The translations under genes were made by a program, and so were the position numbers. Under the pieces are notes generated by a model. It had not been told where the DNA came from, searched no databases, and saw nothing but the letters and a program-made list of their open reading frames with translations. This document shows, piece by piece, positions 11,057 to 57,196 of a stretch of DNA of 64,000 nt (position 1 is the first letter of the stretch; each line of letters starts with the position of its first letter). Source of the stretch: Styela clava (taxonomy: Eukaryota > Chordata > Ascidiacea > Stolidobranchia > Styelidae); assembly GCF_964204865.1 (NCBI RefSeq), contig NC_135259.1:4092001-4156000 (forward strand), in the 5' to 3' direction.

Positions 11057-11863
11057 TCAAAAACCTGCAATGGGGCAAATTTTATCTCTGCACAATTTGC
11101 AATTTCTTTTATCTGAAAAAAAAATGAAAATATTTAATTTCATGATATTGGCAATATGGAAAAACCCGAAAAAATATTGATATTAAGGTCATGACAAGGT
11201 ATACAAATCATCTCATTAATCAAATGAAGAATTTTTCCTTCAAGTTTCAAGTTGATCAGTAAATTGAGATGATATGTTTTTTTTAACAGCAAAATATGAA
11301 ACATACTTCTTCTTCCTCTGGCTTTCTCACATCGTCGAGGTTTTATATAAGAACCAGTACTTCTTGTCATGCAGAAGCGGGAACATTTTGACTTTCCTAT
11401 CACACTATTGCTTTTTCCACGTCGTCCTAAAACAAAATTTTATTGGAGTTCATTCATAGACAAAAACTTACTATAATATAACTCATACAGTATATGAAAA
11501 TATAATATGAGTAATATGTATCCTTAAGTGGATATATGGTTGGACAAAAGTAATATTCGAGATTTTAAATGAAAAGGTATTCGTGACAAAAATGTTGATT
11601 AGGCTTATCCATACTTTTTGTTTTGAAACTTCTCAAAATTTTACAATTGAACCCAGAAGAGTGAAAAATTCGAATTTGATTGGGCTTTTTGACTTTTGAA
11701 TGAATTTTCCTAATGCACACACCTTATCATATAAATTATTCCTACTTAATTTAAAGACAAATAAAATGAGAAACTTACTTGTGTATCTGGCATCCGAATA
11801 TATAGTAGCCGCACAAATCAATATTGCAAGAAATAAAGCGAATTTCAAGTTATTATGATCCAT
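11057..11863 (-). CDS. Gene A: secreted six-cysteine cationic peptide precursor (3 exons)
   Basis: On the minus strand, exon 1 is 11863-11779, exon 2 is 11426-11307 and exon 3 is 11112-11057, giving 86 residues. Exon 1 is a signal peptide (LKFALFLAILICAA core, cleavage likely after SDA). Exon 2 carries CSRFC and a third Cys 13 residues later within PRRCEK; exon 3 reads NKRNCKLCRDKICPIAGF then stop. Donors are GTAAGT and GTATGT, acceptors TTTTAG and TTTCAG, both introns phase 1. The mature part has about 21 Lys/Arg against 2 acidic residues, so it is extremely basic. C-x3-C-x13-C plus C-x2-C-x4-C is the family plan shared by all the 11-57 kb genes and recalls turgencin-type ascidian antimicrobial peptides. 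Divergent from P1. Function is inferred. Confidence 0.83.
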
Positions 11864-11935
11864 ATTTTGTTTAACTGTTGATGGTTTGCACTCAGCTTGT
11901 TTTTGAGAATGTAGCCCTAACTGCAGAAGCCTGCA

Positions 11936-11990
11936 TATTTATGCATACAATTAGGCCTATCTACCTACACCGAAGTATTCCCCTAAAGTA
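11936..11990 (-). promoter_or_regulatory. Conserved promoter block of gene A: TATA-like box and GGGGAATACTT box
   Basis: On the minus strand, ATAAATA lies at 11942-11936, about 75 bp upstream of the ATG. TACTTTAGGGGAATACTTCG lies at 11990-11971. The same two boxes occur in the same order and spacing upstream of B, C and D, although the DNA around them differs. GGGGAATAyTTC is close to, but not an exact match for, a Rel/NF-kB site; immune regulation is a guess. Confidence 0.5.
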
Positions 11991-14522
11991 TTCCATCGTA
12001 CGCTACATTAAGCGCCGTCATAAATAGCGCACCGGTGTTGTTTCAGGCATATTTCCCCGGGTTTGTTTGTACAAAAATGAGCGCGACAATTCTTGAACAG
12101 TTACGTAATAGCAATGCTAGTTATTATGCAGATACAATGATCGGATACAAAATAACTCTGAGGAAATCTCACAGGATTGTTGGTTATGGTAGTGACATCA
12201 TACTAAAATGGGAAAGCAGAACCATTACACGATATACCTCTCGACCTAACGTAATTTCGTTCAATCTTAATCTAATTATAAGCAGTAATCATCAGTAATT
12301 TATTTCCTCACCATGCTGGAAATACACAAATTAGAAAGACACAATTTAAAATAAATCACATTTCGGAATGAAAGGAGGTGCCGAAAATCAATATTGGTTA
12401 TCGAACGGATGTACCTTTGGGGAAGTCTAACAAAACGTGATAAATATGTGATAAAACAAAACGTAAAAAAAAAATCGAACTAAATGCTTGTTTGGATGCT
12501 CGACATGTCACTAAGATGTTGAATTGGCAGGGATGCTTGTTATTTTGGATTATTATCATTCCGGAAAAAGTTCTTCCAATAGCCTGCCTGCGCATATTCA
12601 AATTCAACCGAAAGTCGAAACTTTTTAACTTCTTTAATGATTACAAGTTCTCTTCATATATCTTATAGTATAAAAACTTGGATTTAATCTAGATTCTAAA
12701 ATTAGATGGACAGTTAATGGACGATAGAATTGTCGTATGAATTTTTTTTTTGATGGAATTAAAGTTCTCACCAAGGTTCCCTGGTAACAGCTTCCGGTCA
12801 TTCACGAAATATATGAAAGACCTGTTCTACTGGGATCAAAATTTCCAAGAATAGATCTGTGTTCTGTTTTGCTATTTAAGTAGTTTAACATGAAAAATAT
12901 CGTGAATATCAGGTCAACTATCTCTCAAAAAGTTATGTTATTCCTGAAGGAAAATAAGACTATTTGAGGGCGAGGACGCTGAATTTTGCCAGATGTGGAT
13001 GTGTAATTCATTCTGATGCTGAACACGACAAACGATTTCGTTGGTTTGGTTAGGTTAATTCGTATGTCAGCTTTGTAAAACAGATAAGTCATAAAAACTG
13101 TGAAAGGGCGGTTGGCGGTTTATTTTTTTTCATCCTGCGTTTAATTTTAAGCACGCTTCAAGCATAATAAGCATATATATTAATCCTAAAGCAAGACTGT
13201 ACGAAATCACGCCACGCAATAGACGTTTCTTCGTGGTGATGATGGCACACAAATTCCGCTATTTCACCATATTATTTAAAACCCTGATGGTGTTTACGTA
13301 GTAATGCTGTAATTATATTATAATAACGTAAGTTGATATTGGTTGGGTAAGAGAGTCTCGTTTAAACGGATATCGCGTCATTCACGCTGTCAGCATACCG
13401 CGCACATCGCAAGCGTGAAACAGTCCATATATGGAAGCATATCAGGAAAGAGACGTTTCTCCCGAGGTACTCGACCAAAAATTATCCCAGAAAATCCCCC
13501 TAAATTGCCTATTTATCAATCACGCTCGTATGTTATTGATGCTGTTTACGTGGTAATGTATTACGTAAATCGGGGATGTAAGTTTCATTTTTGTTGGTTA
13601 AAAATGCTTAGATAACCAGGACCAAACAAACGCGATTTTTGTAAAGATTTATTCTCTAAACTGTTTAATAACCGAAAAAGAATCCATGAAACGTTGTTTA
13701 TACGTATACAATGAATCTTATGTTTTATGGTATTGTCACCATTGCTAAATCATCATATAGCAAGTTTGTTAGGCTAAATATATATAAGTATTTGGAAAGA
13801 TATACCAGCCAACATTAACAAAAAACCCAAAATTTCGGTCGAATCAAGTAACTTTTGTGTGAGCTAGAGAATTGAAATCGCCCAATCAAAGTAATATAGT
13901 TAATCATCTTTACTTGCTGGCGACTAATCTGTTCTACAAGAGTGACGAATTGGAATGAGCTGTAACATTTTTGTTTACTTAATTCATAGTCAAACTCGGC
14001 AAATTATATCGTCTTGTTTTTAGAAATACGAATTAAGTATTTATGACTTTGCTTACGAATGCCTCAACGATTTCACGTTCTCGTTGATGAGGTCTTGAAA
14101 AATTTTGCTCAATTTCGCAAAGAATTTCTCCATTCCTAGTTCGTGGAGTTAATCATTAACCGCATGTTGGCGTGGTTATTTGACACTGTGAACTATTTTG
14201 CTTATATAAAACAACTTCATAAGTTTCAATGGTAAAAAAGACATTTCTCCTAAACAACGAGGGATAAATAATGATATATATATAACATTCAGCATCCTAG
14301 TCCAAACTTCCGAAGTTATATCTTCATCGCTGTTTAAATATTTATATATTGGTATATTATATTTGCTACATTTAATCTCAGAGTAGGAAGTTGATAGCAG
14401 AACAGGAACGTTGTTCATGCCAATAAAGGGCGGTTTACCGTTTTAAGCTTATCAAATATAGAAAACTGAAAATGCTTTTTATTTTGCAGAATTTAATTTT
14501 GCTATAACAAATATTCAACAAG
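11991..14522. other. Shared intergenic region between divergent genes A and P1
   Basis: No gene. Segments (for example 12775-13130 and 13200-13615) recur at 21300-21670 and 25270-25740 as part of the tandem units. Open frames here (for example 12035-12298 and 13343-13615) are not conserved as frames in the other copies. About 60-70 bp upstream of P1 is CAAATATAG, a weak TATA candidate, followed by TTTTTATTTTGCAG, a possible trans-splice or leader acceptor 35 bp before its ATG. Confidence 0.5.
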
Positions 14523-15284
14523 ATGAAGCTTATGCTATTTTCTATTTTTTTCATTTTGTTATCTGATATGTTTACTCAAGCCAGACCATCAGGTGAGACA
14601 ATTTACTATACTTGAGTTAATTACAAACTTTACAAGAAATACATATTTTTTTTTTGAATAGTCACAATCTTGTGAACAATTGGTTGATTTTTATCAAAGT
14701 CTTCTTATTTGTTTTCAATGATTTTTTTGAATGCTATAACTAATTCTTTCTTAGTAATGTACTTTTTCACATTCCATAAACCGTTGAAAAATATATAACA
14801 ACAATTACAATATATTTCAGGAAATACTATTCAATTACGACAACTTAAAATAATTTGTCACCGATATTGCAGGATTGAAAACGGATTATTTTCCGGTCTC
14901 AAATGCGAGCGTAGACTAAGATATGGTAAGATACAAATTACGATAAAAACTTGCCGGCATGTAATTTTCTGAAAAAAGATATAGTGTAAGCAAAAAATAT
15001 TCGATTTGATTAAACGAGTTTTTTTGACAAATCATTTTTTTGTCAGAATTGCATTGTGTCATTTCACTAACACAGATGAGTTGATAATTTTGAACCTGAA
15101 TAGTATTTTTTTTAAATTTATTATTCGAACTCATTTCGTGATATGTGTACCGGTTTTGTTGTAATTAATTAAACATAAACTTGTTTATTTTTAATCAGTA
15201 TCAATAAATATTATTTTAGATCGTCGAGCATGTGAAATCTGTCGATTCAAATACGAGTGTGGGGGTGCAAGTATATTTGGTTGA
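14523..15284 (+). CDS. Gene P1: secreted six-cysteine peptide precursor (3 exons)
   Basis: Exons 14523-14592, 14821-14925 and 15220-15284 join to 79 residues. Exon 1 is a signal peptide (MLFSIFFILLSDMF, cleavage likely after TQA). Exon 2 has ICHRYCRIENGLFSGLKCER, that is C-x3-C-x11-C; exon 3 has RRACEICRFKYECGG and ends ASIFG, that is C-x2-C-x5-C. Donors are GTGAGA and GTAAGA; acceptors are ATTTCAG and ATTTTAG; both introns are phase 1. The mature peptide is basic, about +8. Nearly identical to P2 12 kb downstream and clearly related to P3, which shares the YCRI motif and the D-x-R start of exon 3. Divergent from gene A. Secreted host-defence peptide is the favoured guess. Confidence 0.85.
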
Positions 15285-16100
15285 TCTCATATGCGGAATA
15301 TACTATGCACTTATCCGATATTCAGTTATTCAATCATTCGGGAAGATTATAGATATTATTTTAAACGACATATAAACTGATAACAATTGTTTATTAATCT
15401 AGCGCAATTTTTTCAATGTATTCATTTTCATTGATTGAGATGCAGCACCGCAGTTATTATTCGTGATATTGTCTATTGTGTCTTGCTTAACGAAACCACT
15501 ATTTTCAGAATAATTCAATTATTTTTCCTTTAAATGTACTTATTGACATTGTATATTATTTATTCATAAAAGCATAAAAGCAAAGCATTCATGATTGTCA
15601 TTCTTGACTTCATCACAATTCAGTGAATTAAAATACTGAATACATGTTGTGCAACTATGGTATTGACATTTCAATATTTTTGACTAAGATTCTAAATATT
15701 TGTTTAAGTTCTGCATTGACATGTAATTAAAGGTTTACAAATATTTTTTTGCTATGAGATGCATTTCCAAATTTCTCATTTCAAGTTTATTTTCAGAGGA
15801 AACAATATTTGGCAATAAATCAGAACTGTTTATAAATTGAATTTAAGGTTGTAGAAATGAGTACTAGAGCAGTAGAGCAATCAGAATTAGAGAGAGAATT
15901 TTAGGATCTTATGTCATTGACGCTTGAAGAGAGATTTCACAATTTTTTTTTTCAATTTTTAAAAAAGTTGCATAACTAAATCTGCAGCGTATTCGTTTTA
16001 TATATGGATCAGTATACTTGTTGTTATTGGAGCTCTTCCAATATATATGGTTATATAAAAATACTTTAAACGCTTATGTCAGGAAAACTCGCACATTTTA
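15285..16100. other. 3' flank of P1, no further gene
   Basis: A TATAAA hexamer near 15370-15376 stands where P2 has a perfect AATAAA (27375-27380), so cleavage of the P1 transcript may use a weaker signal. The remainder is AT-rich. GGAGCTCTTCCAATATATA near 16028 is a short block that recurs near 29100, 32598 and 33990. Confidence 0.45.
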
Positions 16101-16109
16101 AAAGACTGG

Positions 16110-17690
16110 GACAAGCTGAACAGGTTTGGAATTAGAGTGACACTATTATAAGTGTGGTAAAAGTTACATAAATGTTGGAAAAGCCGAGAAACAAGTTTGA
16201 TTCAATCACGACGAGTGTGAGAAAGGCAGGACAAATAACATAGAAGAGAAAGTGGGGAACAACTAGTATAAGTATGGTAAAAGCAAAATAGGTGCCGAAT
16301 AGACGGAGAACGTTTTAGACAAGCAAGATAAGTTTGATTCAATCAGGACGTGTCTGTTACAAGCCAAACAAGTATGAGACAAACAAGGGACAGGTTCGAA
16401 ATAAGCAGAACATCTGTGGGTGAAACAAAATAAGTGCGGTCAAAAAATACAGAAGTGGTACAGTCGAACAAGTGTGATATATTCATGACAAGTTTGAGTC
16501 AAGCAGGGCAAGTGTGGGACTATCAAGACAAGTGTGATAAAAGCAGAACAAGTGAGGGATAAGCGAGTGAATTTTAATTAATTCATGAAAAGCAGGCAAA
16601 GTATTATACAAGCAGGGCAAGTGTGAGACAATCAAGACAGGTGTGAATTAATCAGGACGAATGTGGGACAAGTGTGGCACTAACCGGACAAATATTGGAA
16701 ACTCAGGAAAAGTATAGCACGAACGAGGTAAGTTGGATGTAAGCAGGATAAGTTCAGGATAAGCAGGACAAGTTTGGGACGGTCAGAAAAACTGATTTAC
16801 ATGCAGAACATATTTCAAAATCAAGAGAAAATTTAATTCAATCAGGACAAGTGGTAGGAAAGCAGGAAAAATATCACACAAGAGCAAATATGAGACAAAC
16901 TGGACACGTTTTAAATAAACAGTACGAAAGTAACATCAACAGAATAACTTTGATACAAGCAGGACAATGGTGGGTCAAGCAGAACAAGTGTGAGACGAGC
17001 GAATAAATTTTGATTCATTCAAGAAAAGCAGGACAAGTATGATACGCGCAAGACACGGTTGAAATAAGGGTTACAGGTGTGGGACATGGAATACAAATGT
17101 GGTAGAAGTAAATCAAATGCGGGGCGAGCAAAACAAATGTAAGGCAATTATGTCAATTTTGTTTTAATAAAGACGAGTCGGGCAGACGAGCAGGACAAGC
17201 AAAATACCAGGACAGGTTTGAAATAATCAGGACAACTGTTGGTGAAACAACATAGGTGCAAATGAAAAACATAAATGTGGAACAGTTCGAACAGTGATAG
17301 ACAAGACGGTCAGGTAAGGAACTATTAAAACAAGTGTGGGACATGCAGAGAAAGTGTTAGACAAGTTCGATTCAATGAGGAAGAGTGTGTGACAGCTGAA
17401 CAAGTATGAGACAAACAAGATAGGTTTATAATAAGAAGGACAACTGAGGGTGAAACAACATAAGTGCGATAGACAAATGCGGGACAAGCCGAATAATTGA
17501 TAAAAGAAAGACAAATTTGATTAACTGTGAGCGTAAGACATGCTGATCAAGTGTGGAGCGAGCGGGACGAGTTTGAGACAAGCAGGGCAAATGTGGGATC
17601 ATCAAGACAAGCGAGGAAAATGCGGAACAAGTGTGAGCCAAGCATGACAAGTGTGAGACAAACGGGTGAATTTTGATTTAAGGCGTTCAA
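16110..17690 (+). repeat. Degenerate minisatellite, GACAAGTGTGGGACAAGCAG-like unit
   Basis: About 1.6 kb is built from drifting variants of GACAAGTGTGGGACAAGCAG, roughly 20-25 bp apart (GGACAAG, CAAGTGTG and AAGCAGGAC recur dozens of times). Open frames on the minus strand at 17153-17650 rich in Cys, Ser and Leu arise from the repeat and are not genes. The array is absent at the matching place in unit 2 (about 28.3-29.1 kb). Confidence 0.8.
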
Positions 17691-17699
17691 ACTCTCACA

Positions 17700-18480
17700 A
17701 CATAGATGAGGTCCATTTCTTAAGTATTTTTGACAATGGCAGTCATTGGCGCTTGACTGGTTATCTACGCGGGCATGCGTTTAAAATCTTTTAGTGGCTA
17801 AAACAGGATAACATAGGAAATTGACGTTAGAATTTTTCTTTTGATTCAAAACATCAGATTGTCGCCATATGAAAAATATAATTTATTGTTTTATTGAATT
17901 AGGGCCTATTTTATCATCACTTTTTTATCACCTAAATTTGCATTGATCCGTGACTTGGCAGGTCGCTGAAAAAACGCTGGGGTCACTTTGTAATTCGCGG
18001 GTCATTGGTTCGCTATTCCTTCTTTTATAAGTAATTTAAATATATTAGTTATATTTTGGAAAACACATTACATTCATCTCGTTTATCTGACAACATTTTA
18101 TTTTAAATCAGTCTGGCACTACATTTATTTGGGTTCCATCTCGTTTGTAATTTGCCGCGGGTATTCTGCACATACAACGCTATTATCTTTTTCGGTGGGT
18201 AAGTAGGCAGGCTCTAAAATGTTCTTTAATACTTTTGTGTCGCGAATCTGCGCCAAAGACTTAGATAGCGAATATTTATGCATTGTGAAGTTGAGAAAAT
18301 ATCTACTCGGCAATACTATTTAAAAAAAAAAAAGAGATTTATTTTAAATTGTCCGGGAAGATCTGTGGGGTAATAGAACCCTTCCGCCGAGTTACAGGTT
18401 AATCCACCGCGAGCTCAATCTGACACGTTTTGTGTTGTTAAAATGCTTAAACTCACCATATCATATAAATACCAACTTCT
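17700..18480. repeat. Repeated noncoding block also at 29160-29740 and 34060-34800
   Basis: Three copies share GCATGCGTTTAAAATCTTT, then TTTGCATTGATCCxTGAC, GGTCGCTGAAAAAA and AATCTGACACGTTTTGTG in the same order. The first two are the matching parts of units 1 and 2; the third implies a further partial copy upstream of P3. Short frames inside are not conserved. The GCTGAAAAAA...GGTCATTGG part looks like the decayed end of a mobile element. Confidence 0.6.
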
Positions 18481-19722
18481 AAATATTCATCAAAATCTTA
18501 GCGTAGTAGTTGGATATGTGAAGTTCAATATCAACTAGCGAAGATTGCAACGTATTGTCTCAGAATATTTTTGCACGTGAACTTACTGCTGGCATCTTAT
18601 TGTTTAAGAGAATAAACCTAAATTATAAAACATACAATAATATATTGAGCATATGGAGACTTCTTTTTACAAATAAATTGTCTTTGATGTGGGGTATAAG
18701 TTACGGAAAATGAGGACATTTGTATTAAAGATTCGATCACTAATAAAAAATGTTTGCAAAAATAGTTTTACTGAAATATTCAATATTGTGCGTTAACGAA
18801 TTCTTGTTTGTCACTCGGGTTCATATTTTTGTATACTGTATGTTGACGTCAATTCGATTGAATCGTTACGCGTCTGATAAAATACAATAAATCGAGTCGA
18901 GAATCCACGTCACCTGCAAAATATATAACTATTACAAATATACGATAAGTTCAAAAGAAATTCTGATGGCTGAAAGTTCTCAATTAATCCAATAATTTCG
19001 ATATTGAATAGGTAAAATGCATTTAGGTAACTGGAAGTTACGGCTGAGACTGATGGTGTAATATACAAAGAATTCTGGCCTTTTTCTAATGAAAATAAAC
19101 TGTATCCATCCATTAACTGAACTCTTTGCAGATCTCAAAGCAAGCTGTTTGTTATAAAAATAAAAGTGAAACCCTAATTGCAGAAACTCACAGATATGGT
19201 ACGTTTTTTGTTGTAACGTCGTCGAAATGTTGATAAGGGCTGGGAACTTAGAGGAACGTAGGAGTTGACCTTCAGTACCTCAAATATTGAATTATCGCAA
19301 AACACCAATTTTTGAGAAATGTGTATTTACTTTAACAGAATATTTCAAAATAAAGTAACAACATATGAAAGATATATTTTCATAAAAAATAAAATGTAAA
19401 ATCTAACACTAACACAATTAGAATCTTTGATTTACAAATAAGATACATCTTGATCAAATTTAATTTTTGATATTCTTGAAATATACTGAAAAACAATAAA
19501 TATGTATTCAAGAAATTAGTTAGTTGAATTTATAGAATCCCTACCTTATCCAGATTTGCCCGAGCACATACACGTACGTATACATACATATATATGTGAA
19601 TTATAAGTCGAATAAACATACTGACTAGTACTGTAGTACGACGATGACTGCATGTGTAGTAACGAGTTAATCAATGACAGTCAAAATATTTTGATACAAA
19701 GTAAATAAAATTCGAAATGAGA

Positions 19723-20317
19723 TCAGACACATCGAACATCAACAATATAAAAAGAACCAATACTTGTTGTTGGGCAGAAGCGGGAACATTGTGAATTTCC
19801 TATTACACCAATTCCCTTTCTACGTCGTCCTCAAAAAAAATTAAATTGGAATTTATAAAAATAAAAAAAAACCAACTTACTTTTATATAACTTATACAGT
19901 ATGAAATTACAGAATAATAGGTATCTATCCTGAATTCGTGTAGAATGCAATCAAAATAGTTTCATCGAAATATCACAACTATCATTTTGAAATTTCAATG
20001 GAACAAATATAATATTTAACATTTTAATAAAAAACTTTTTCGTAACATCAATACTGTTTAGGCATACGCATACTTTTTGTTTTAGAAATTCTTAAATTTT
20101 TACATTTTGACCTAAAATAGTGAAAAATTCTCTTTCGATCAGCCTTTTTGATATTCATATGAATTTTTTTCCAATGCATATATATCCACTCCTATTCATT
20201 ATTCCTACCTAATTAAAATGAAAACCTACTTGTGTAAATGGCATCCGAATATATAGTTGTCGCACACATCAATATTGCAAAAAATAAAGCGAATTTCATA
20301 TTAATATTAGGATCCAT
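19723..20317 (-). pseudogene. Gene B: broken copy of the six-cysteine peptide gene (exon 3 deleted)
   Basis: Exon 1 (20317-20230) is intact and encodes the usual signal peptide (MKFALFFAILMCATT), but its donor is GTAGGT rather than GTAAGT. Exon 2 starts at 19829 with the normal junction and keeps GNSQCSRFC. About 25 residues in, a deletion of roughly 370 bp has joined the middle of exon 2 to DNA that in A, C and D lies downstream of exon 3. The frame then reads on through VDVRCV to a stop at 19723. The end of exon 2, intron 2 and exon 3 (CKxCRxKIC) are gone. If expressed it would make a 64-residue three-cysteine product. The junction falls near 19747-19752. Called a pseudogene, though the read-through frame is open. 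Confidence 0.75.
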
Positions 20318-20392
20318 ATTTTGTTCAACTGCGGTTGATGGTTTGTACTCAACTTGTTCCTGTGATTGTAGCCCTAAGTACAGTAGCTCGCA

Positions 20393-22497: not shown

Positions 22498-22670
22498 GCA
22501 AGCATTTTTGTTTTAAAAATGAAACCCTTATTTACAGAAACTTACAGATATGTTAATTCGTTTTTAAATTGTTACGGCGTCGTGATGTCGATGAGTGCTG
22601 AAAATTCAGGATATGGTAAAAGTTGACCTTCAGAACTTAAATATTAAATTATCCCAAAACACCAATTATT

Positions 22671-22946
22671 TGAGGAATATATATTTACATACACAGTATA
22701 TTGCAGAATAAAGTAACAACACAGAAGATTTGGGAAATATATATTTACATACACAGTATATAAGATTTGGGAAATATATATTTACATACACGGTATATTT
22801 CAAAATAAAGTAACAACACAAAAGATTTGGGAAATATATGTTTACATACACGGTATATTTCGAAATAAAGTAACAACACAAAAGATTTGGGAAATATATA
22901 TTTACATACACGGTATATTTCAAAATAAAGTAACAACACAAAAGAT
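22671..22946 (+). repeat. 60-bp tandem repeat, four to five units
   Basis: The unit is ATATATATTTACATACACGG followed by TATATTTCAAAATAAAGTAACAACACAAAAGATTTGGGAA, with repeats at 60-bp spacing (22766, 22826, 22886) and one shortened unit near 22730-22765. A, B and D have this segment once (10607-10660, 19320-19375, 30545-30600), so the array expanded only in the C copy. Long minus-strand frames here are repeat artefacts. Confidence 0.9.
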
Positions 22947-23387
22947 CTATTTTTCAGCAAAAATAAAAAACGTACAATTTACCACTAGAATCTTCGATTT
23001 GCAAATAAGATACATCTTCAATTTATGGTATGCTTAAATATTAAGCCATAATATATGCCGAAAAACAATGTATATTCCAAAAAAAATAATTAACACTGAA
23101 TTTATAGAAACCATACCTTAACCAGGTTTAATCGATCGCATACATGTACGTATACATACATATATATGTGTCTTATAAATCAGATAAACATATTGTCTAA
23201 TGTAGTACGACGATGATTGTGTAGTAACGAGTGTATCAATGAAAGTCGAGACATTTTGAAACAAAGTAAAAACAATTTAAAATAAAATCAGACATATCGA
23301 GCATCAATAATGTGAATGAAGTTTCAAAATTTTAAAACATATCACCAAACGATCGTGTAAAAATTTATGAAGGCGCAAATCCGTTTG

Positions 23388-24085
23388 TTATTGCCAAAGG
23401 CCAGCATTGGCGCAAATTTTATCTCTGCACACTTTGCAATTTCTTTTATCTGAAAAAAATATTTATTTCTTGATATTAACAATATGGAAAAACCCGAAAA
23501 AATATTGATTGATTAAGGTCATGACAAGGTATACAAATCATCTCATTAATTAAATGAAGAATTTCTCTTCAAGTTTCGAGTTGATCAGTAAATTGAGATG
23601 ATATGTTTTTTTAACAGCAAAATATGAAACATACTTCTTCTTCCTCTGGCTTTCTCACATCGTCGAGGTTTTATATAAGAACCAGTACTTGTTGTCATGC
23701 AGAAGCGGGAACATTTTGACTTTCCTATCACACTAATGCTTTTTTCACGTCGTCCTAAAACAAAATTTTATTGGAATTCATTCATAAACAAAAATTTACT
23801 TTAATATACTCATACAGTATGAAATTGCAGAGTAATATGTATCCTTAAGTGGATTTTTAGTTGGACGAAAGTAATATTCGACATTTTGAAAGAAAACTTA
23901 TTCGTTACAAAAGTTATGAATTTTCCTAATGCACATTGCTACCTTTAATCAATTATTTCTACTTAATCAAAAACGGCAATTAAAAAAAGAAACTTACTTG
24001 TGTATCTGGCATCCGAATATATAGTTGTCGCACAAATCAATATGGCAAGAAATAAAGCGAATTTCATGTTAATATTTTGACCCAT
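23388..24085 (-). CDS. Gene C: secreted six-cysteine cationic peptide precursor (3 exons)
   Basis: On the minus strand, exon 1 is 24085-23998, exon 2 is 23754-23635 and exon 3 is 23449-23388, giving 89 residues. The signal peptide (MKFALFLAILICATT) may start at either of two in-frame Met codons, 6 codons apart. Exon 2 holds GKSKCSRFCMTTSTGSYIKP then RRCEKARGRR; exon 3 holds NKRNCKVCRDKICANAGLWQ. All six cysteines are kept (C-x3-C-x13-C, C-x2-C-x4-C) with phase 1 introns. Exon 2 pairs with gene A, but exon 1 and the promoter match gene D, a sign of gene conversion. The C-terminus is two residues longer than in A. Strongly basic and probably secreted. Divergent from P2. Confidence 0.83.
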
Positions 24086-24135
24086 ACTGTTGATGGTTTG
24101 TACTCAATATGAGACTGTAGCAGACTGTTGAGACT

Positions 24136-24183
24136 TATTTATGCATGAAAGTATCCCCCATACCGAAATATTCCCCTAAAATA
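24136..24183 (-). promoter_or_regulatory. Conserved promoter block of gene C
   Basis: ATAAATA at 24142-24136 and TATTTTAGGGGAATATTTCG at 24183-24164 on the minus strand. The flanking 24050-24150 is nearly identical to 31850-31935 upstream of gene D. Confidence 0.5.
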
Positions 24184-24517
24184 TTTTATCGTATGCGACT
24201 TGAAGTGTCTATTCTTAAATTGCGCACTGTTGTCCGGCATATTTCCCCGCGGACTACAGTCTCGGGTTTGTTTGTACATGAATATTTGAACAGTAACATA
24301 AACGCAATGCTAGTGACCATGCGGATACAATGATCGGATCAAAGTGACTATAACACTATAGCAAACCGTAGACCGTCGACACAATCGCACTTGATTAGAA
24401 TATGCATAAAGTTTGAAAACAGAAATATTACCCGTTATGCCCTACAGTGGACATAAACGTAATTTCGTTCGGTTTTAATTCCATAATTTCGGAAAAAGCT
24501 CTTCCAATAGCTTACAC

Positions 24518-25174
24518 AAGGGTCGTCCAACTTGTGGCCCGACGAAAGTTTTCGAGTTGCCCGCGCTGTATTATTCGAATCTCGGTGTCTCTTACAAATC
24601 CGGGCCACTATTGAAATCTTTAATGAAAAAGTTGTTCCTCGACGTTCAAACGCGCGAAAAGTACGAAAGCCTTTTTAAGTCTCTTTGCGGACGTTATTGT
24701 TGGAGAGAAACATTTGAATTAATTTTTATCGTCTGTCATGTATTTTTCAATCTGTTTCCCTGGCTTTTTTTTTTGTGAAGAAGCTGTTTTTATGACCTCA
24801 ATATTCGACTGAACTTACTTGTAAGAGCAAGTTTTTTCACGAATATGAACCATGTCAAATGCCCCACGAGATCACTAAATTCTGATAGTCATATGAAAAG
24901 TTTGCTTCGCATTACTACATCGTTCATCGCGGCAAATATTGACAAACTTGTTGGATAAAAGCAGTGCCATACTCCACATTGAAATATCTATGTTTGGTAA
25001 AAACTTTTGACTTTACTGTATCTTCGTATTTTCATCGTTCTTATAATACTGGCGTAAGGGTTTTGTTTGTTTTTTCATTAACCTGTAGACGGTGTAGTGA
25101 AAACTATAACAAAACTACCATATTAAGTGGTCCGCACAATTATTCGTAAACTACATCAAGGTTGGACAACCCTG
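24518..25174 (+). mobile_element. hAT element relic with transposase C-terminal fragment, inserted in unit 2
   Basis: The ends are AAGGGTCGTCCAACTTGTGG at the left and GGTTGGACAACCCTG at the right, flanked by GCTTACAC (24510-24517) and GCCTACAC (25175-25182). The related sequence at about 20900 and 12570 shows the uninterrupted site. On the plus strand about 24820-24958 encodes FFTNMNHVKCPTRSLNSDSH and LLRITTSFIAANIDKLV, the same hAT dimerisation region as at 8358-8558. The element is internally deleted and inactive. It was probably inserted after the 12-kb duplication. Confidence 0.8.
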
Positions 25175-25182
25175 GCCTACAC

Positions 25183-26525
25183 ATATATTTAAATCCAATC
25201 GAAAGTCATTCTTCGACGTCAACAACGTTAGAAATACTAAATTTATCCACGCAAAATGTGTAAGAGCGGTTTATTTTATTTTTATATTCATCCTGCGTTA
25301 AATTTTAAGCACGCTTCAAGGATATTGAGCATATATTGTAATTCTAAAACTAGCCTGTACTAAATCACGCCACCTAAGAGGCGTAAGAGGAGCAAAATGA
25401 TGGCACTTAAATTCCGGTATTTCGCCATATCTCAACCCATGGTGATCTTAATAGGGTTTATGTAGTAATGCTGTAATAATATTAGTAACGTAAGTTGAAT
25501 TCGGTTATGCAAGTAAGCCTCGTTCATACGGATATTACGTCATTCTCGCTTCAGCATACCGCGCATATCGTGGGCGTAAAATAAATCCATATATGGTATA
25601 CTATTAGATAAGAGACGTTTCTCTCGCGCGGTACTCGACCAAAAATTATCCCAGAAAATCCCCCTAAATTGCCTAATTATAAATCATGCTCGTATGTTGT
25701 TGATGATGTTTATGTGGTGATGTAAGTTTCATTTTTGTTAGTTAGAAATGCTTAGATTACCATGACCATACAAACGCGACATTTGTAAAGATTTAAACTA
25801 TTTAATCACCGGAAAAGAATACATGAAACGTTGTTTATACGTACACGATGAATCTTATTTTTTATGGTATTTTTATCAAAGCTAACTCTACATATACCCA
25901 ATTTGTTACGCCAAATATATATTGGAATTCGGTAAGTTATATCAGCCAACATCAACAAACAACCCAAAATTTCCGTCGAATCAGAAAGCTTTTTATGTTA
26001 GCTTAAGAATTTAAATCACTCAATCAATTAAATATAGTTTATCATCTTTACTTTCTCGCGAACAATCTGTTCTACAAAAGTGTCGAATTGGAAAATTTTG
26101 CACATTTTCACAAAGAATTCCTCCATTCCTCGTTCGCGGAGTCATTAACCGCACGTTGGCGTGATTCTCTGACATTGTAAACTACAGTATTTTGCTTTGA
26201 CAAGATAACTTCAAAAGTTTTGACGATAAACAAAACATTTCTCCTAAACAACGAGGGATAAATAATGATACCGGTATATATATAACATGGGGCATCCTAG
26301 TCCAAACTCCCGAAGTTAGATATTTATCGTTGTTTAAATATTTATATATTGGTATAATATATTTGCTACATTTAATCTCAGCACAGTAGGAAGTTGATAG
26401 CAGAACAGGAAAGTTGTCCATGCCAATAAAGGGCGGTTTACCGTTTTAAGCCTATCAAATATAAAAAACTGAAAATGCTTTTTATTTTGCAGAATTTAAT
26501 TTTGCTATAACAAATATTCAACGAG
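25183..26525. other. Shared intergenic region between divergent genes C and P2
   Basis: It parallels 12600-14522 in unit 1, including ATAAAGGGCGGTTTACCGTTTTAAG about 100 bp before the plus gene. The frame at 26182-26421 has a counterpart at 14176-14418 on the minus strand only because the DNA is duplicated; it has no signal peptide or domain, and I do not call it. Confidence 0.5.
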
Positions 26526-27288
26526 ATGAAGCTTATGCTATTTTCTATTTTTTTCATTTTGTTATCTGATATGTTTACTCAAGCCAGACCACCAGGTGAG
26601 ACAATTTACTATACTTGAGTAAATTACAAACTTTACAAGAAATACATAGTTTTTTTGAATAGTCACAATCATGTGAACAATTGGCTGATTTTTATCAAAG
26701 TCTTCTTATTTGTTTTCAATGATTTTTTTAAATGCTATAACTAATTCATTCTTATGAATGCACTTTTCACATTCCATAAACCGTTGAAAAATATATAAAA
26801 ACAATTACAATATATTTCAGGAAATACTATTCAATTACGACAACTTAAAATAATTTGTCACCGATATTGCAGGATTGAAAACGGATTATTTTCCGGTCTC
26901 AAATGCGAGCGTAGACTAAGATATGGTAAGATACAAAATAACTTACGGTCAAAACTGACCGGCATGTAATTTTCTGAAAAAAGATATATTGTAAGCAAAT
27001 AATATTCGTTTTGATTAAAAAAGCTTTTCGACAAATCATTTTCTGTTAAAATCACATTGTGTCATTTCACTAACACAGATGAGTTAATAATTTTGAGCCT
27101 GAATATAATTTTTTTTAACTTTATTATTCGAACTCATTCCGTGATATGTGTTCCGGTTTTGATTTAGTTAATTAAACATAAATTTGTTTATTTTTCACTC
27201 ATTAACAATAAATATTATTTTAGATCGTCGATCATGTGAAATCTGTCGATTCAAATACGAGTGTGGGGGTGCAAGTATATTTGGTTGA
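26526..27288 (+). CDS. Gene P2: secreted six-cysteine peptide precursor, near-identical to P1 (3 exons)
   Basis: Exons 26526-26595, 26821-26925 and 27224-27288 join to 79 residues. Exon 2 is identical to P1 at the nucleotide level; the only protein changes are Ser to Pro at residue 23 (just after the cleavage site) and Ala to Ser next to the fourth cysteine (RRSCEICRFK). Splice sites and phases are as in P1, and introns differ by scattered substitutions and small indels. AATAAA lies at 27375-27380. The six-cysteine plan is C-x3-C-x11-C, C-x2-C-x5-C. Probably a functional recent duplicate of P1. Confidence 0.85.
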
Positions 27289-27380
27289 TCTCATATGCGG
27301 AATATACTATGCACTTATCCGATATTCAGTTATTCAATCATTCGGGAAGATTTTGAATGTTATTTTAAGCGACCAATAAA

Positions 27381-29160
27381 CTGATAACAACCGTCATTGG
27401 TCATTTTCATTGATTGAGATGAAGCACCGTTGTTATTTATACTTTTTATTTTTTATTTTGTGCATTGCTTAACGAATCCACTATTTTCAGAATCCTTTCA
27501 TTATTTTGTACATATTGACTTTATATAGTATTATATTCAATTATTTTAAATATTTTCATATTTAAATCTTAAATGAAGGCAGAAATGACAATATTAATGG
27601 TATGTTTAAGAAAGACAACAAGACGAGTTGATCGCATTGCGAACCACTACTTCTTGCCTGTCTTGCAATGTAGGTCTAATCCAATGTATATGAAAATAGT
27701 TCACCAGTTTCAGATTGCATGAAGTTGTCGACGGTTTTATTCTACCAGCAGTCAATTTTTTAAGAAAAATGTTGAAATTAATGTCATGAACGAATCATCA
27801 TATGCAGTGGCCAAAGTATGCTATATCAGGTTTGAATAGACACGGTGGCATGAAAGCAAAGCATTCATGTAGAGATGTTACGATTGTTGGACGCGAATTC
27901 ATCACAATTGAGTGAATCAAAATACTGAATACATGCATTACAACCAGAAACGTCTACTCTCTTTTAACGATATATGTGTGTAGTAATCTTCATATAAGCC
28001 ATAACAACCTGGAAGTTTCTATACATTCGAGTATCTTTTGTTTGATTATTTTTGGGCCAAGCCTTGTTTTAACTAGGTTTGTGTTTTTTCCTAAATTTAT
28101 TTCTGTATGTGTGCTGGGGGGCGGGCACATGTTATTTCCCATGTTTTAAACCTTTTCAAAGGTTTTGCTCGCCCCCCAGAATTCTCCATTTTAAATTTGT
28201 GTATAAATATGAAGTATTAGAATAAACTATTTATCTATTATTATAGAAATAAGTTCTAGAGCAGTAGTACAATTTTTTTCAATCAGAATCAGAGGGAGAA
28301 ATCCCAAGTCTTACGTTATTGACGCGTGAAAAGGGATTTCACAATTTTTTTTGCTCAAGTTTTAAATTTTCTTTCCAATTCTCAAAAAAATTTCTTCACC
28401 AAATTTTCAACGTATTCGTTGTATAATTATGTTAAATCAATATAATTGTTGCGGTAATTTCATTATTGTAAGTCCTCCGAAAATTTGACAAAGACATTTT
28501 GATACAGTAAGTTAACGATAAAAATATTGTCTGGTATTATACCATCTGCCTCTTGATTATGACGATTTACCACTTTCACGCCTCTGGCCAAGTCCTCATA
28601 TACACTGAACAATGCCGACTACTACGCGTTGTTTGGCAAGTACGAATCTATCGAAAAATATTTACGGGCAAAAAGGGATTGCTGAACTCAAAGCCGCCAC
28701 CAGACGACGTTTGCGACGTGATAAGATAGTATTTGCATATTTATCCCGGGGAGGGGAAAACAGATAGGAATTCAAACTTCAAGTTTCCATGAAATGTAAG
28801 AACTTCCAAACAACCATATTATATTAAAAATTGTTCGCCAAACTCAAATTCTCAGTAAAAGCGATTTCTGATACAATTACGACACTACTAAGCATTTAGC
28901 GATTTTATTAGACGCCGGGGTGGCTGTGAAATGCTGTTTCAACGATTTTAACTAAAACAATACGAATGTTAGTGCGGCTGTATTTAGTGCATATTATTTT
29001 TCTCATTTTTTCATCCAGCAATTTAATCAATCCTTAAACCAAGTCATGAAATGCATAACTTCGATAGTTTTATTCTTATCCGGATAAACGGAACGATCTT
29101 TGGAGCTCTTCCATAATTTAAACGCTTACATCAGGAAAACTCGCACATTTTAATGCGTTC
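27381..29160. other. 3' flank of P2, no further gene
   Basis: AT-rich. Contains a fold-back segment at 28114-28179 and sequence without a counterpart after P1. No exon with a signal peptide or cysteine pattern was seen. Confidence 0.4.
28114..28179. repeat. Inverted repeat with CTGGGGGGCG / CGCCCCCCAG arms
   Basis: CTGGGGGGCGGGC at 28114-28126 pairs with GCTCGCCCCCCAG at 28167-28179, and AACCTTTTCAAAGGTT forms an inner palindrome. This is much more GC-rich than its surroundings. Could be a hairpin-end element or part of a longer MITE; class unknown. Confidence 0.6.
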
Positions 29161-31051: not shown

Positions 31052-31869
31052 TTATGGCCAAAGACCTGTAATGGAGTAGATTTTATTTTCTCTGCACACT
31101 TTGCAAATTTTTTTATCTGAAAAAAGAATGAAAAAAAATTATTTAAGGATACGGCCAATATGATAGCAGGCAACAAAAATATCGAAGGTGATTTATAGCA
31201 AGTTATACAAATCATCTCATTATTTAAATGAAAAATTTCCTTTTCAAGTTTTTAGTCGATCAGTAAATTGAGATGATAAGTTTATAAAAGCGAAATATAA
31301 AACATACTTCTGATCCCTCTGGCTTTCTCACATCGTTTTATATAATAACCAGTGTTTGTTGTCATGCAGAAACGGGAACATTGCGAATTACCTTTCACAC
31401 CAATGCCCTTTCCACGTCGTCCTAAAAAAACATTTTATTGGAATTTATTAGTAAACACAAACTAACTTACTTTTATATAACTTATACAGTATTGAATTAC
31501 AGTGTAATAGGTATCCCAAAGTCGTTTAGAATGTGGAATGCAATCAAAATTGTTTTATCGAAATGTCGCAATTATCATTTTGGATTTTTTGTTGGACAAA
31601 AGTAATATTCAACATTTCAATGAAAAAACATTTTCGTAATAACAATTTTATTTTACGCATACTCATACTTTTTGTTTCAGAAATTTCCCAAACTTTATTA
31701 ATTTTCGTATGATTTTTTCTAATGCACATTGCCACCCTTTATTTCTACTTAATCAAAACGGCAATAAAAAAAGAAACTTACTTGTGTTTCCGGCATCCGA
31801 ATATATAGTTGTCGCACAAATCAATATTGCAAGAAATAAAGCGAATTTCATGTTAATATTTTGACCCAT
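31052..31869 (-). CDS. Gene D: secreted cationic peptide precursor of the six-cysteine family, sixth cysteine lost
   Basis: On the minus strand, exon 1 is 31869-31782, exon 2 is 31421-31308 and exon 3 is 31116-31052, giving 88 residues. The signal peptide region is identical to gene C apart from GNT instead of RYT at its end. Exon 2 has GNSQCSRFCMTTNTGYYIKR then CEKARGIR (C-x3-C-x11-C, two residues shorter than A and C). Exon 3 reads NKKICKVCRENKIYSITGLW: the sixth Cys codon TGC is TAC (Tyr), and one residue is inserted. That leaves five cysteines, so either one is unpaired (dimer possible) or the gene is losing function. Frames and splice sites (GTAAGT, GTATGT, TTTCAG-type) are intact. Confidence 0.78.
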
Positions 31870-49991: not shown

Positions 49992-49999
49992 GATTTATT

Positions 50000-51032: not shown

Positions 51033-52531
51033 ATGAAAATCTGCCTATTCGCCGTTTTCGTACTTATAATCCTGTGGATTACTTGCTCAGAGAGCGCAAA
51101 ATGTAAGTGGGTTAGACGACTACAAATAGAGTAATAAAGTAGTAAATAAATTTTTTTACTGTATTCATTATATTATTATATTTGATAAACCGAAAATGTA
51201 CCAAAAGTAAATCGTTTATCTAAGTTGTAGGTGAGATGACGAATTGATTCACGTTATATCTCGTAAATCAATAACGAGAATGCGCATAATTTTTTGTTCA
51301 GACACAGATGTTAGTGAACTAACCCTGCGTTCAGTTTGAAATTTACAATTATTTGAGCATTACATTTTGTCGAAGGTTCACCATTACTAATAAAGAATAT
51401 ATCTGAATATTTATTAAATCAGAAAAATAAGTCTTTAATAAAATACTACAATTTAATTCGGCTATTTATCCAGATGAATTGCTATTTGTGGATTGTCTGA
51501 ATCGGAGAAAAAATAGCATTAGCTATTTCAAAAACATATTAAGTTTTTTGTGAACTTTTGTTTCGGTATTTCAAACGAAGTTAGGATGTGACAAACGAAT
51601 TGTGAACGTAACTATACTAACAACATATAAATACTACTTTTCGTTGAATACTTATTCAAATTTATATGAAAATGCAAAATGGCGAAGTGTGATTCCGGAA
51701 AAATCTCTATTTTTTTATACTATTTAACATCACTTATTGTGCATTTTCATATTTTCTTCCTATATAATGAATATCTAGACGGGAAACCGCATCTCGTCGC
51801 TAAAGGAAGATTGGGACAATTGTTATTCGGGAAGAGAACGCATTTTCGCCGCAAGAATTTTTTTATCCGAGCTCGGGGGAAAACAACAATAGATTGCCGG
51901 AAGTTCTGCAAAAGGAATCACGATGGAAGTTTAGCTGGAAGAACGTGCGACAAGAGAGGACCAAGAAGTAGAGGTAATGAAAATGTTTCACGACTTATCA
52001 TTATGAGTTGTTATAAAGGGAATTTAAATGAGTGTACCCGACTTTGAATTAGTTTTCAAAACACTTTCAAGCGAAGAGCGTGATATTCTTCAATTTGATT
52101 TATCTTGGTATATAATTGATTACATCCATATATCATTTAAATTTGGTTAGCAAGAATTTTGGTCTGGGTAGAAAATTTTCTAAAAAATGGCTGTCCCCTA
52201 ACTGTCATTTACATATTATTTTACGTCAATGCTGAATTAATTAAGAGATCATCTGATATATTTTTGCACGCTTGTCAAAATAATATTAATAATCTTTCAA
52301 CAACATATCTGAACTAAAATAAAACAACTTCTAAACATTTTCACTTTTTCTATTTACCTAAAATATTTTAGAAATTGTGATGCTAAAAATAGCGGATTAA
52401 AACTAGAATTTGTAATAAATAGATTTTTGTAATATCATGAAATTTTTAAACTTTATTTTTTTTTTACAGTATTCTGCCGAATTTGTCGTTCAAACGAACA
52501 CACATGCGGAACCAAAGATATATTCTCATGA
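51033..52531 (+). CDS. Gene P4: secreted six-cysteine peptide precursor with long basic N-terminal extension (3 exons)
   Basis: Exons 51033-51102, 51779-51973 and 52470-52531 join to 108 residues, the longest of the family. The signal peptide core is LFAVFVLIILWITC (cleavage near SES). Exon 2 (64 full codons) starts with about 38 residues rich in Lys, Arg and Phe (LFGKRTHFRRKNFFIRARGK), then CRKFCKRNHDGSLAGRTCDK (C-x3-C-x12-C). Exon 3 is VFCRICRSNEHTCGTKDIFS (C-x2-C-x6-C). Donors are GTAAGT and GTAATG, acceptors ATATCTAG and TTTACAG, both phase 1. KR and RR sites could release the basic extension as a separate cationic peptide. TATATATTTTTGCAG precedes the leader. AATAAA lies at 52722-52727. 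The exon 2 acceptor is the least certain call. Confidence 0.75.
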
Positions 52532-52651: not shown

Positions 52652-52672
52652 GTCATCAGGCTACCTGATGAC
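52652..52672. repeat. Perfect 9-bp hairpin, 3-nt loop
   Basis: GTCATCAGG, loop CTA, then CCTGATGAC, in the 3' flank of P4 and 50 bp before its likely polyadenylation signal. Could act in the 3' UTR RNA; no family is recognised. Confidence 0.6.
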
Positions 52673-54518: not shown

Positions 54519-54526
54519 GTCTAATA

Positions 54527-55690
54527 ATGATAATGATTTTGTAATTGTATTTTGGCAAGCAGCCTATGGCTTGGTTCCATCCTACGATCTCAGTCATCAG
54601 GCAGACGAATGTAGGCTACCTAGTATAATATATTAAGATATAGTTAGTTAGTTTGACAAGCTAGAGGGCTACTACGCTGGTTTGATGGCTTCTCGGTATA
54701 TATATATATTCACATATTTTGTGTGAAATAAAATGTATTTCATTACAAGATATTTACATTCTTATTTATTACGCGTTGAATATGATCACATAAATCATTT
54801 TTATTCTAACTGTAATGAATTAACTAATCGTAACTGAAAGTACTCGTTTGAAGCGATGTTTTGAAAAAGCCTAATATTAACACAAAAATTCGTTACACTT
54901 TTGGTCGAATCGTTTCAATATTGCATATGCATTCTGCTTTTTATACTTGAAATAACATTAGAATGATATATTGAATTTCACGTTAGTAAATGTTAAATAT
55001 ATTCATATTTTATGTATGAAACGAATGCATAAGTGCTATTTACCCTTAAATGATACCAATAGTTTATAAATAAAGTATTTGAGAAGAAGGTAACATTTAA
55101 AGCACTAACAACTTTTCGCTTTATTTTTAACGGGATAGCGGATTTCAATTCTATCTATGTTCAAAATCATATTCATTCAAGGCATATGTTATGCATTTAC
55201 TACAAAACTACCACACAACCACGCAAGGAAAATTCAAAACCAAAAGACGCTTTACGTATCCTCTCGACTTTCAGGAAGTGGAAATTACGAATAATAGCCG
55301 GGACATTAACAGGCGGTCAGAATTCGGACATAGGGTCAGATTTACTCAGTCATGTCGCCATTGTTTCTTCAAATGATTGATGTGTAATATAGGAAAGGAG
55401 TGACTTAAGATTTGCATATTGATGCTTTGTATTCAAATCCGATACATTGGAAAATTTTGTGACTAAATGTCTTAGTTTATCTCTCCATATATGACTCAAC
55501 GTAGTATTATCGCCAAGCAACAAACTTTATAATGAAAACAATAAATAAACATCTACGGTAAAGAAATTCAAGATAATCTGAAGTGAATAAAAGAATATGC
55601 AGTTACAAAAAATTATCATTATTTCTACAAGCACTGCAATGTGTGCACGAAGCTGAAGGGGTAAGACATCGGCGATTAGAAAGAAGTATC
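54527..55690. other. Upstream region of gene P5
   Basis: No independent gene. Overlapping frames at 55186-55380 have no signal peptide or domain. TTATTTCTACAAG ending near 55632 is a candidate leader or trans-splice acceptor about 60 bp before the P5 start. Confidence 0.35.
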
Positions 55691-57196
55691 ATGAAGATTC
55701 TACACATAAGTTTTTTGCTGATATTTTCGATACTGTTGCCGATTGCACAGTGTGTATCAAACGAAGGTAAAAAATCAAATTTTTGACTTTTGTTAACGGA
55801 GCTGTTTATCATAACAAATAAACTGTTATTATTAATTCTTCATATGCATATACATATATATATATATATGTATAATATACATTCCAAATAGTTTGACTAG
55901 CCAATAATAGTAACCATGTTTATTAATCTGAATACGTGTGTGAAAAATTCCGATCAATCAGAATAGTTATCGTACAAAAGATATATATAATAAAAAAGCA
56001 AACCTTTGGTCGGGGATTCACAACTCAAACTGTAAAGAGTTGCGACACAAACCACATTAACATTACTTGTTAGTTTCTGTTTCAGATAGAACCGCGGGAT
56101 AGGCATGTGTGAACAATCCTCTCGATTTAAATTCTTACGACTCGAACGCGCTTTTTTGGTCACATCATGCGCGCGTGCCCCATGTTGTCGGCACCTACAG
56201 ATAATAAACTAAAAATGCGATTCGGATTCAAACTTAATACCGAACATTTTTGTACAAATAAATTTTGATTTTCGTAGCTTTCGTTGAAAATTTTTATATT
56301 TCGTATTTTAATATTAGAGTTTGAAGACTATTTCGAGAATGCTATTATGGACAGAGATGCAGATTCGAGATTGAACTTTATACTGGTCAGCTGCAGTTCC
56401 TTCTGCAAAATTCGAGGAAATACTTTCATTGGTCACTGCTCGCAATGGTGGAGTAAAAGACGTATGAAATTGTTTCATTACTTTTACCTATTTTGCAAGT
56501 TAACATGCATACATATATATTTGCACATCTATACATTACTTACTCATCAGAAAATGTGTCAGAAGCAATGACTTCACATTCCTATGTTTTTTAAAGTGTG
56601 ACGTTTTAAGTTTATTTCACAACTTTCGAGAAAGCAAACATTCCCGATGCTATTTGTCATTCGGTACTTGTATGATATTATATACACATGCATTCCCTCC
56701 CTATTCGCACATGAGACATTTACGGGCTTCCGTTTTGTGTGTAACCAATACTTGAAAGGGTTCTGTGGCACAATTTTTGTTTAATATTGATGAAAAAATG
56801 TAACATTTGGAATTTTCATCAAGTTGTTGTAGGTTTATTTATCTGCATGCCACAGATAGTATAATACAAAAGAAAGATAACCGGGAACTCATTATTTCTC
56901 AATAATAATAAAAAATGATAAGAATGTGCGATGCTAATTATATGGATACGAACGTCAAAAGTCATATCGAATTGTACTTTCAAATTAAAATAAAATATTG
57001 CTGTCGTTAGGTTTGCTATAATTTGTGTAAATTACGTACATTTTTCTATCGTCCTGTGTAGGTTAGGAGAATCGGTCATGAATTTTATCGTTGTTACTAA
57101 CCAACTTTTCACTCATTGTGATTGTTTATTTATCATACAGATCTTTGCTACTACTGTCGATCGTATTTGTGCCACTTTGCTTCGCTTCATGGATGA
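55691..57196 (+). CDS. Gene P5: secreted six-cysteine peptide precursor with acidic pro-segment and Trp-Trp motif (3 exons)
   Basis: Exons 55691-55766, 56318-56461 and 57141-57196 join to 91 residues. The signal peptide is MKILHISFLLIFSILLPIAQ (cleavage near QC). Exon 2 opens acidic (FEDYFENAIMDRDADSR), then SCSSFCKIRGNTFIGHCSQW and WSKR (C-x3-C-x10-C). Exon 3 is HLCYYCRSYLCHFASLHG (C-x2-C-x4-C). Donors are GTAAAA and a weaker GTATGA; acceptors are AATATTAG and CATACAG; both introns are phase 1. Unlike its relatives, the region before the cysteines is acidic, which may be a pro-piece. QWWSKR after the third cysteine echoes QWWRKKR of the gene at 908. An upstream in-frame Met exists but the signal peptide fixes the start at 55691. 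Confidence 0.75.

What the first reader, a model, noticed from the sequence alone, without database searches (positions are those of the whole stretch)
11057..57196. Undescribed multigene cluster of three-exon, six-cysteine secreted peptides on both strands
Eight loci (A-D on minus; P1, P2, P3, P4 at 51033 and P5 at 55691 on plus, one of the minus loci broken) share one gene plan: signal-peptide exon, phase 1 intron, exon with C-x3-C-x10..13-C, phase 1 intron, short last exon with C-x2-C-x4..6-C near the stop. Sequence between cysteines is highly variable and mostly very basic. None of these is visible as a long ORF, so standard prediction would miss them. The cysteine plan resembles turgencin-type ascidian antimicrobial peptides as I recall them, where pairing is 1-6, 2-5, 3-4. 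A defence-peptide cluster is inferred.
Basis: partly seen in the sequence, partly recalled or inferred. Interest (0 to 1): 0.92.

Follow-up and report, generated by a model that had tools for sequence, protein, structure and literature searches.

The report
New six-cysteine secreted peptide gene family
This stretch of an animal (probably sea-squirt) genome holds a real cluster of small three-exon genes for secreted, mostly strongly basic peptides with six cysteines, which look like immune-defence peptides but match no known family.

Summary
The gene cluster is real. All nine named loci exist: seven have the full plan, D has lost cysteine 6, and B has lost the end of exon 2, intron 2 and exon 3. 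Both introns are phase 1 in all eight complete window models. Core spacing C-x3-C-x10..13-C-x9..11-C-x2-C-x4..6-C holds in the seven intact ones. A strict scan finds six of them and nothing in 40 shuffled windows. Four more complete genes (E, F, G, H) and one relic exon lie elsewhere on the same contig. There is an alpha branch (A-E, G, H) and a beta branch (P1-P3, F), plus P4 and P5; at least A/P1 and C/P2 are head-to-head pairs copied as a unit. Coding sequence is conserved in P1/P2 and P1/F. In the young pair G/H, exon 2 has diverged about three times faster than the introns. No Pfam, NCBIfam or PDB sequence match is significant. Turgencin kinship fails: three of five spacings differ, its motifs are absent, profile scores are chance-like. 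Best reading: a fast-duplicating family of cationic, cysteine-stabilised secreted peptides, most likely antimicrobial. The function is inferred. The host's tunicate identity rests on one GH6 match.

The parts
11057..11863 (-). Gene A (alpha): exons 11863-11779, 11426-11307, 11112-11057; 86 aa; core spacing 3,13,11,2,4
19752..20317 (-). Gene B (alpha), broken: exon 1 20317-20230, exon 2 starts at 19829, deletion junction at 19752 removes the rest of exon 2, intron 2 and exon 3
23388..24085 (-). Gene C (alpha): exons 24085-23998, 23754-23635, 23449-23388; 89 aa; core spacing 3,13,11,2,4
31052..31869 (-). Gene D (alpha): exons 31869-31782, 31421-31308, 31116-31052; 88 aa; cysteine 6 replaced by Tyr
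14523..15284 (+). Gene P1 (beta): exons 14523-14592, 14821-14925, 15220-15284 (acceptor 15199 also possible); 79 aa; core spacing 3,11,10,2,5; ends in Gly
26526..27288 (+). Gene P2 (beta): exons 26526-26595, 26821-26925, 27224-27288; 79 aa; near-copy of P1
35495..36462 (+). Gene P3 (beta, diverged): exons 35495-35567, 36131-36229, 36401-36462; 77 aa; core spacing 3,11,10,2,5
51033..52531 (+). Gene P4 (singleton): exons 51033-51102, 51779-51973 (donor 51967 also possible), 52470-52531; 108 aa; core spacing 3,12,10,2,6
55691..57196 (+). Gene P5 (singleton): exons 55691-55766, 56318-56461 (donor 56452 also possible), 57141-57196; 91 aa; core spacing 3,10,9,2,4; acidic stretch before the basic Cys core; ends in Gly
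10417..15525 (.). Duplicated unit: alpha gene A and beta gene P1 head to head
   Evidence: self-BLAST
22498..27507 (.). Duplicated unit: alpha gene C and beta gene P2 head to head
   Evidence: self-BLAST

Best explanation
The window holds an array of a small, rapidly duplicating gene family that encodes secreted, cysteine-stabilised, mostly strongly cationic peptides. Exon 1 gives a signal peptide; exons 2 and 3 give a short N-terminal stretch and a core of six cysteines, presumed to form three disulfides. Inferred mechanism: the precursor is secreted or stored in granules of blood cells or epithelia, trimmed at the signal peptide and perhaps at basic residues, oxidised, and the folded basic peptide binds and damages microbial membranes or walls. 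P5 would carry its own acidic neutralising stretch, as many defence-peptide precursors do (recalled). Gene structure, family membership, duplication and selection are shown from sequence; secretion follows from the hydrophobic first exon (no signal-peptide program was run); folding, processing and antimicrobial action are inferred.
For: Splice models with the same intron phases in 12 of 12 complete models, 8 in the window and 4 outside. A strict scan finds 6 genes in the window and 0 in 40 shuffled windows. Leave-one-out profiles over 11 members (D left out) score 10 of 11 above all 500 cysteine-fixed shuffles; for P5, 1 of 500 reaches its score (A/C and P1/P2 are near-copies and help each other). 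Purifying selection: P1/P2 coding 2/237 against introns 40/517, p=2.4e-5; P1/F mature part N 28/130.7 against S 26/37.3, p=6e-8. G/H: introns 86/1455 (5.9%), exon 1 1/69, but exon 2 17/104, p=0.0003; exon 2 nonsynonymous 14.5/80.3 against introns, p=0.0004. Birth and death: B truncated, D minus one Cys, a relic exon at 12.1357 Mb. From C1 to the end, net charge +3 to +14 and pI 8.7-11.1 in 12 of 12 models. Terminal Gly in P1, P2, F and P5 would allow C-terminal amidation.
Against: No RNA, peptide or activity data. No significant match to a known defence-peptide family. The fast-exon signal comes from one pair of the four compared this way; inside G/H exon 2 the nonsynonymous against synonymous contrast alone is not significant (p=0.51); exon 3 aligns with gaps; A/C, C/D and P1/P2 show constraint or no excess instead. 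Gene conversion could also make one exon differ. G and H have a weak second donor, GTTTGT, set by homology. Charge and duplication also fit deterrent, reproductive and signalling peptides.
Confidence: 0.6

Rival explanations
1. Reproductive or self/non-self recognition peptides: fast-evolving secreted ligands used on gametes, blood cells or colony borders.
For: Fast mature exon in G/H; a species-specific cluster of defensin-like genes acts as pollen-tube attractants in Arabidopsis (start of abstract seen in the listings, PMC3525529).
Against: Such a role does not need the very high basic charge; P1, P2 and F are conserved; no receptor or allelic data.
Confidence: 0.15
2. Signalling peptides (hormone-, neuropeptide- or cytokine-like) with three disulfides and, in P1, P2, F and P5, an amidated C-terminus.
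For: P1, P2 and F are conserved and end in Gly. P5 has a weak match to Calc_CGRP_IAPP over residues 1-45, E 0.12, 13.3 bits against a cut-off of 22.3.
Against: Alpha genes are very basic, multi-copy and partly decaying; no Pfam hormone family passes its cut-off.
Confidence: 0.12
3. Deterrent or predator-directed secreted peptides.
For: In sea anemones a clustered peptide family with an inverted copy was recruited to venom, with a proposed role in defence against predators (abstract and passages of PMC10210398 seen; that paper calls the functional test inconclusive).
Against: No significant sequence match in Pfam or among PDB sequences.
Confidence: 0.08
4. True turgencin genes (members of the Synoicum turgens peptide family).
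For: Six cysteines, shared C-x3-C and C-x2-C, cationic charge, possible amidation in 4 of 12; turgencin A scores better than 478 of 500 of its shuffles.
Against: Three of five loops differ in length, CXMAC and KKXGG are absent; turgencin B scores at chance (329 of 500).
Confidence: 0.04

Closest known systems
Turgencins A and B (Synoicum turgens; PMC7024374: passages, section 2.2 whole, section 2.3 first part read)
   Same: Six non-adjacent cysteines with C-x3-C first and C-x2-C late; cationic; this genome is probably also a tunicate's
   Different: Loops here are 3,10-17,9-11,2,4-6 against 3,4,7-8,2,3; CXMAC and KKXGG absent; no convincing profile similarity; disulfide pairing here unknown
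Myticin precursors (Pfam PF10690) and macins (PF14865)
   Same: Small secreted cysteine-rich invertebrate defence peptides (recalled); weak matches of G and H (E 0.005, 0.17) and of P5 (E 0.01)
   Different: All far under the curated cut-offs: 17.5 and 12.6 against 28.5 bits, 16.8 against 27 bits; myticins and macins have more cysteines (recalled)
Beta-defensins and big defensins
   Same: Six-cysteine defence peptides; a phase 1 intron is mentioned for a Manila clam big-defensin gene (PMC7203481, passages seen)
   Different: No adjacent last cysteine pair in the core here; no Pfam match listed; the same paper says big defensins are absent from tunicates
St-CRP-1 and -2 (PMC13208793, abstract and passages seen)
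   Same: Six-cysteine ascidian peptides
   Different: 18-19 residues with two pairs of adjacent cysteines

Membership tests
Turgencins | Six core cysteines, none adjacent | tested here: met
   11 of 12 complete models; D has five. Several models have further cysteines outside the core
Turgencins | Spacing 3,4,7-8,2,3 (counted on the sequences printed) | tested here: not met
   C2-C3 10-17, C3-C4 9-11, C5-C6 4-6 in 11 of 11 six-cysteine models
Turgencins | CXMAC and KKXGG motifs | tested here: not met
   absent from 12 of 12 models
Turgencins | Sequence similarity to the family profile | tested here: not met
   22 of 500 (A) and 329 of 500 (B) cysteine-fixed shuffles score as high or higher; A alone is borderline
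Turgencins | Disulfides 1-6, 2-5, 3-4 | not testable with these tools
   needs the peptide
Turgencins | Amidated C-terminus | tested here: inconclusive
   terminal Gly in P1, P2, F and P5 only, 4 of 12
Turgencins | Precursor gene with the same intron positions | not testable with these tools
   the 2020 paper says its cDNA library attempts had not succeeded
Myticin (PF10690) / Macin (PF14865) | Score over the Pfam cut-off | tested here: not met
   17.5 and 12.6 against 28.5; 16.8 against 27
Beta-/big defensins | Adjacent last cysteines (CC; recalled) | tested here: not met
   C5-x4..6-C6 in 11 of 11 six-cysteine models; the one CC among the 12 is in P3's signal exon
Cationic host-defence peptides (functional class) | Short, cationic, cysteine-rich, with a hydrophobic leader | tested here: met
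   hydrophobic exon 1 and basic cysteine part, pI 8.7-11.1, 12 of 12; no signal-peptide program run
Cationic host-defence peptides (functional class) | Kills or inhibits microbes | not testable with these tools
   no assay

The most novel reading that the evidence does not exclude
A two-part peptide system: a conserved beta peptide and a faster-changing, very basic alpha peptide encoded head to head (A/P1 and C/P2, copied as a unit; D/P3 lie in the same arrangement) that act together, beta as fixed partner and alpha as variable binder, in immune or self/non-self recognition, on a cysteine framework not yet described.
Probability: 0.08. Interest if true: 0.75.

Novelty: new variant of a known kind. 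Interest (0 to 1): 0.55.

Why it matters
Genes cut into three tiny exons are easily lost in genome annotation (inference). Twelve complete models on one contig, with a fixed cysteine plan and exon-specific rates of change, give a ready set for RNA, peptide and activity tests. They are also a seed to ask whether tunicates, where PMC7203481 reports no big defensins, use a disulfide-rich peptide family of their own. If the head-to-head alpha/beta pairing is functional, it would be an unusual organisation for such peptides.

Tried and rejected
Two further C-x3-C candidates in the window (38469 and 41891, + strand) have no usable partner exons. The relaxed scan also gave one spurious pairing of P2's exon 2 with an exon at 27611. 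PDB profile search with 10 of the 12 models: 9 matches, all Mdm2, E 3.6 or worse, taken as chance. NCBIfam, same 10: best E 0.0074 to a hydrogenase subunit, taken as chance. Pfam, same 10 (D and P2 not scanned): 8 families, best E 0.005, none over its cut-off; besides Myticin, Macin and Calc_CGRP_IAPP these are GCM, CTD5, CEP104_ZnF, PDCD2_C and DUF1179, taken as chance. Rfam: none in the window. COX1 in the assembly: none, so the mitochondrial code could not be used to test for a tunicate. A viral-contig search did not run for lack of conserved columns. Species naming: the four sea-squirt genomes whose sizes I saw (129.3, 210.1, 197.0 and 605 Mb) do not fit 376.6 Mb; dropped.

Full report
Observation. 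The cluster is real. A, C and P1-P5 have an upstream ATG exon with a hydrophobic stretch and a downstream exon with C-x2-C near a stop; D's last exon was read from the sequence. Splice sites and phases fit. Intact core spacings are A and C 3,13,11,2,4; P1, P2 and P3 3,11,10,2,5; P4 3,12,10,2,6; P5 3,10,9,2,4. D reads Tyr at cysteine 6. B is cut: at 19752 its exon 2 joins sequence that in D lies about 360 bp further on, after the stop. The strict scan found 6 window genes (P4 fails its acceptor rule), 0 in 40 shuffled windows, 0 in the reversed window and 0 in the 8 other 10-kb stretches given to it (of 12 held), of which two each hold part of gene F.

Family beyond the window. The window is C13:4092001-4156000 of a 376.6-Mb assembly of 379 contigs. 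Exon-by-exon searches found more members, all on C13: E at 5.141-5.144 Mb (+), F at 5.379 Mb (-), G at 9.640 Mb (-), H at 9.634 Mb (-) and a lone exon 2 at 12.1357 Mb. E, F, G and H splice into complete proteins with the same phases. They were found by similarity and a relaxed scan; the default scan had missed them, partly because intron 1 of E is 2.9 kb. The second donor of G and H is GTTTGT, weaker than usual, and was set by homology. E has a 15-residue and H a 17-residue C2-C3 loop, and E ends in a further cysteine. Searches used A's DNA and the proteins C, P2, P3, P4, P5, E, F and H. Nine weak protein hits elsewhere (E 0.14 to 1.45) were not followed. A diverged singleton like P4 or P5 elsewhere would be missed, so 12 complete models is a lower bound.

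Branches and duplication. The protein tree of 12 models (B not included) separates A, C, D, E, G, H from P1, P2, P3, F with 98/96 support; P4 and P5 fall on the alpha side but outside that group, and P3 and P5 sit on long branches, so their places are unsure. B is alpha by its DNA match. Self-comparison shows that the blocks carrying A, B, C and D are copies of one another, that the P1 and P2 blocks are 89% alike, and that the spacers between A/P1 and C/P2 are 79% alike over about 0.86 kb. So an alpha(-)/beta(+) head-to-head pair was copied as a unit at least once. D and P3 lie in the same arrangement, but no copy of the P1 block was seen at P3. The B unit has no beta gene that I could find. 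E, F, G and H are not in such pairs in the stretches fetched, which weakens a pairing function.

Selection. P1/P2: 2 changes in 237 coding bases against 40 in 517 intron bases (p=2.4e-5; another alignment gave 46 in 517). P1/F: mature part N 28/130.7, S 26/37.3 (p=6e-8), while aligned introns differ at 80/180 and 156/282 bases. This says that these exons code for protein under constraint. A/C exon 2 is low against introns (N 3.0/92.7 against 48/423, p=0.02). C/D shows N below S in the mature part (p=0.037). G/H is the exception: 1-12 differences per 100 bases in the other blocks over about 3 kb, 1 of 69 in exon 1, but 17 of 104 in exon 2 plus 12 in-frame gap bases. Exon 2 N 14.5/80.3 against introns 86/1455 gives p=0.0004; N against S in exon 2 is not significant (p=0.51); exon 3 N 10.3/43.2 and S 4.7/13.8 are both raised but its end aligns with gaps. 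Four pairs were tested this way and nine more simply, where gap placement gave other counts (A/C introns 71/426 against 48/423). I read G/H as fast change of the mature exon; exon conversion is the alternative. The p values are not corrected for the number of tests.

Known families. Pfam, NCBIfam and PDB sequences give no significant match for the 10 of 12 models scanned. The weak leads of the right kind are Myticin-prepro (G 17.5 bits, H 12.6, cut-off 28.5) and Macin (P5 16.8, cut-off 27). Turgencins, read from PMC7024374, differ in three loops; turgencin A scores borderline (22 of 500 shuffles as high) and B at chance (329 of 500) against the family profile; that paper had no gene sequence. 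The charge and cysteine-rich build make a similar way of working plausible, but these genes cannot be filed as turgencins.

Host. A GH6 exon over the Pfam cut-off (42.4 bits, cut-off 27) lies at C9:16.18 Mb. Frames around it in L010 look like further exons by eye, but the two tested gave no Pfam match over cut-off. Among animals GH6 is recalled as a tunicate trait.

Literature. Paper searches for turgencin, ascidian cysteine-rich peptides, tunicate peptide clusters, six-cysteine peptides and lineage-specific families listed no paper that by title or start of abstract describes this family; not every paper found was listed. The library is partial.

Conclusion. A real, probably undescribed gene family; secreted (from exon 1), disulfide-rich (inferred), mostly cationic, in an array with gene birth and death. 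Antimicrobial defence is the most likely role, at about 0.6.

Noticed in passing
G000 C13:12135633-12135780 (L038): A lone alpha exon 2 (CTRFCMYSTNTGSYIKPYRC) with no partner exon 1 or 3 recognised in the 30 kb fetched around it: probably a relic copy.
   Followed up: partly
window 16001-20000: Purine-rich stretch (GC skew 0.165, AT skew 0.141) with degenerate 20- and 40-base tandem repeats at 16483-16672; no stop-to-stop frame of 100 aa.
   Followed up: no
window 22668-22952: Tandem array with a 60-base period (96% matches over 22762-22946) that interrupts the 3' flank of gene C relative to gene A.
   Followed up: no
window 7561-7738 and 57753-57930: Inverted dispersed repeat pair at about 74% identity.
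   Followed up: no
L010 (C9:16.18 Mb): A GH6 exon in an animal genome, perhaps part of a multi-exon gene.
   Followed up: partly
L034, L035 (genes H and G): Both have GTTTGT as second donor, where A, C, D and E have GTATGT.
   Followed up: no
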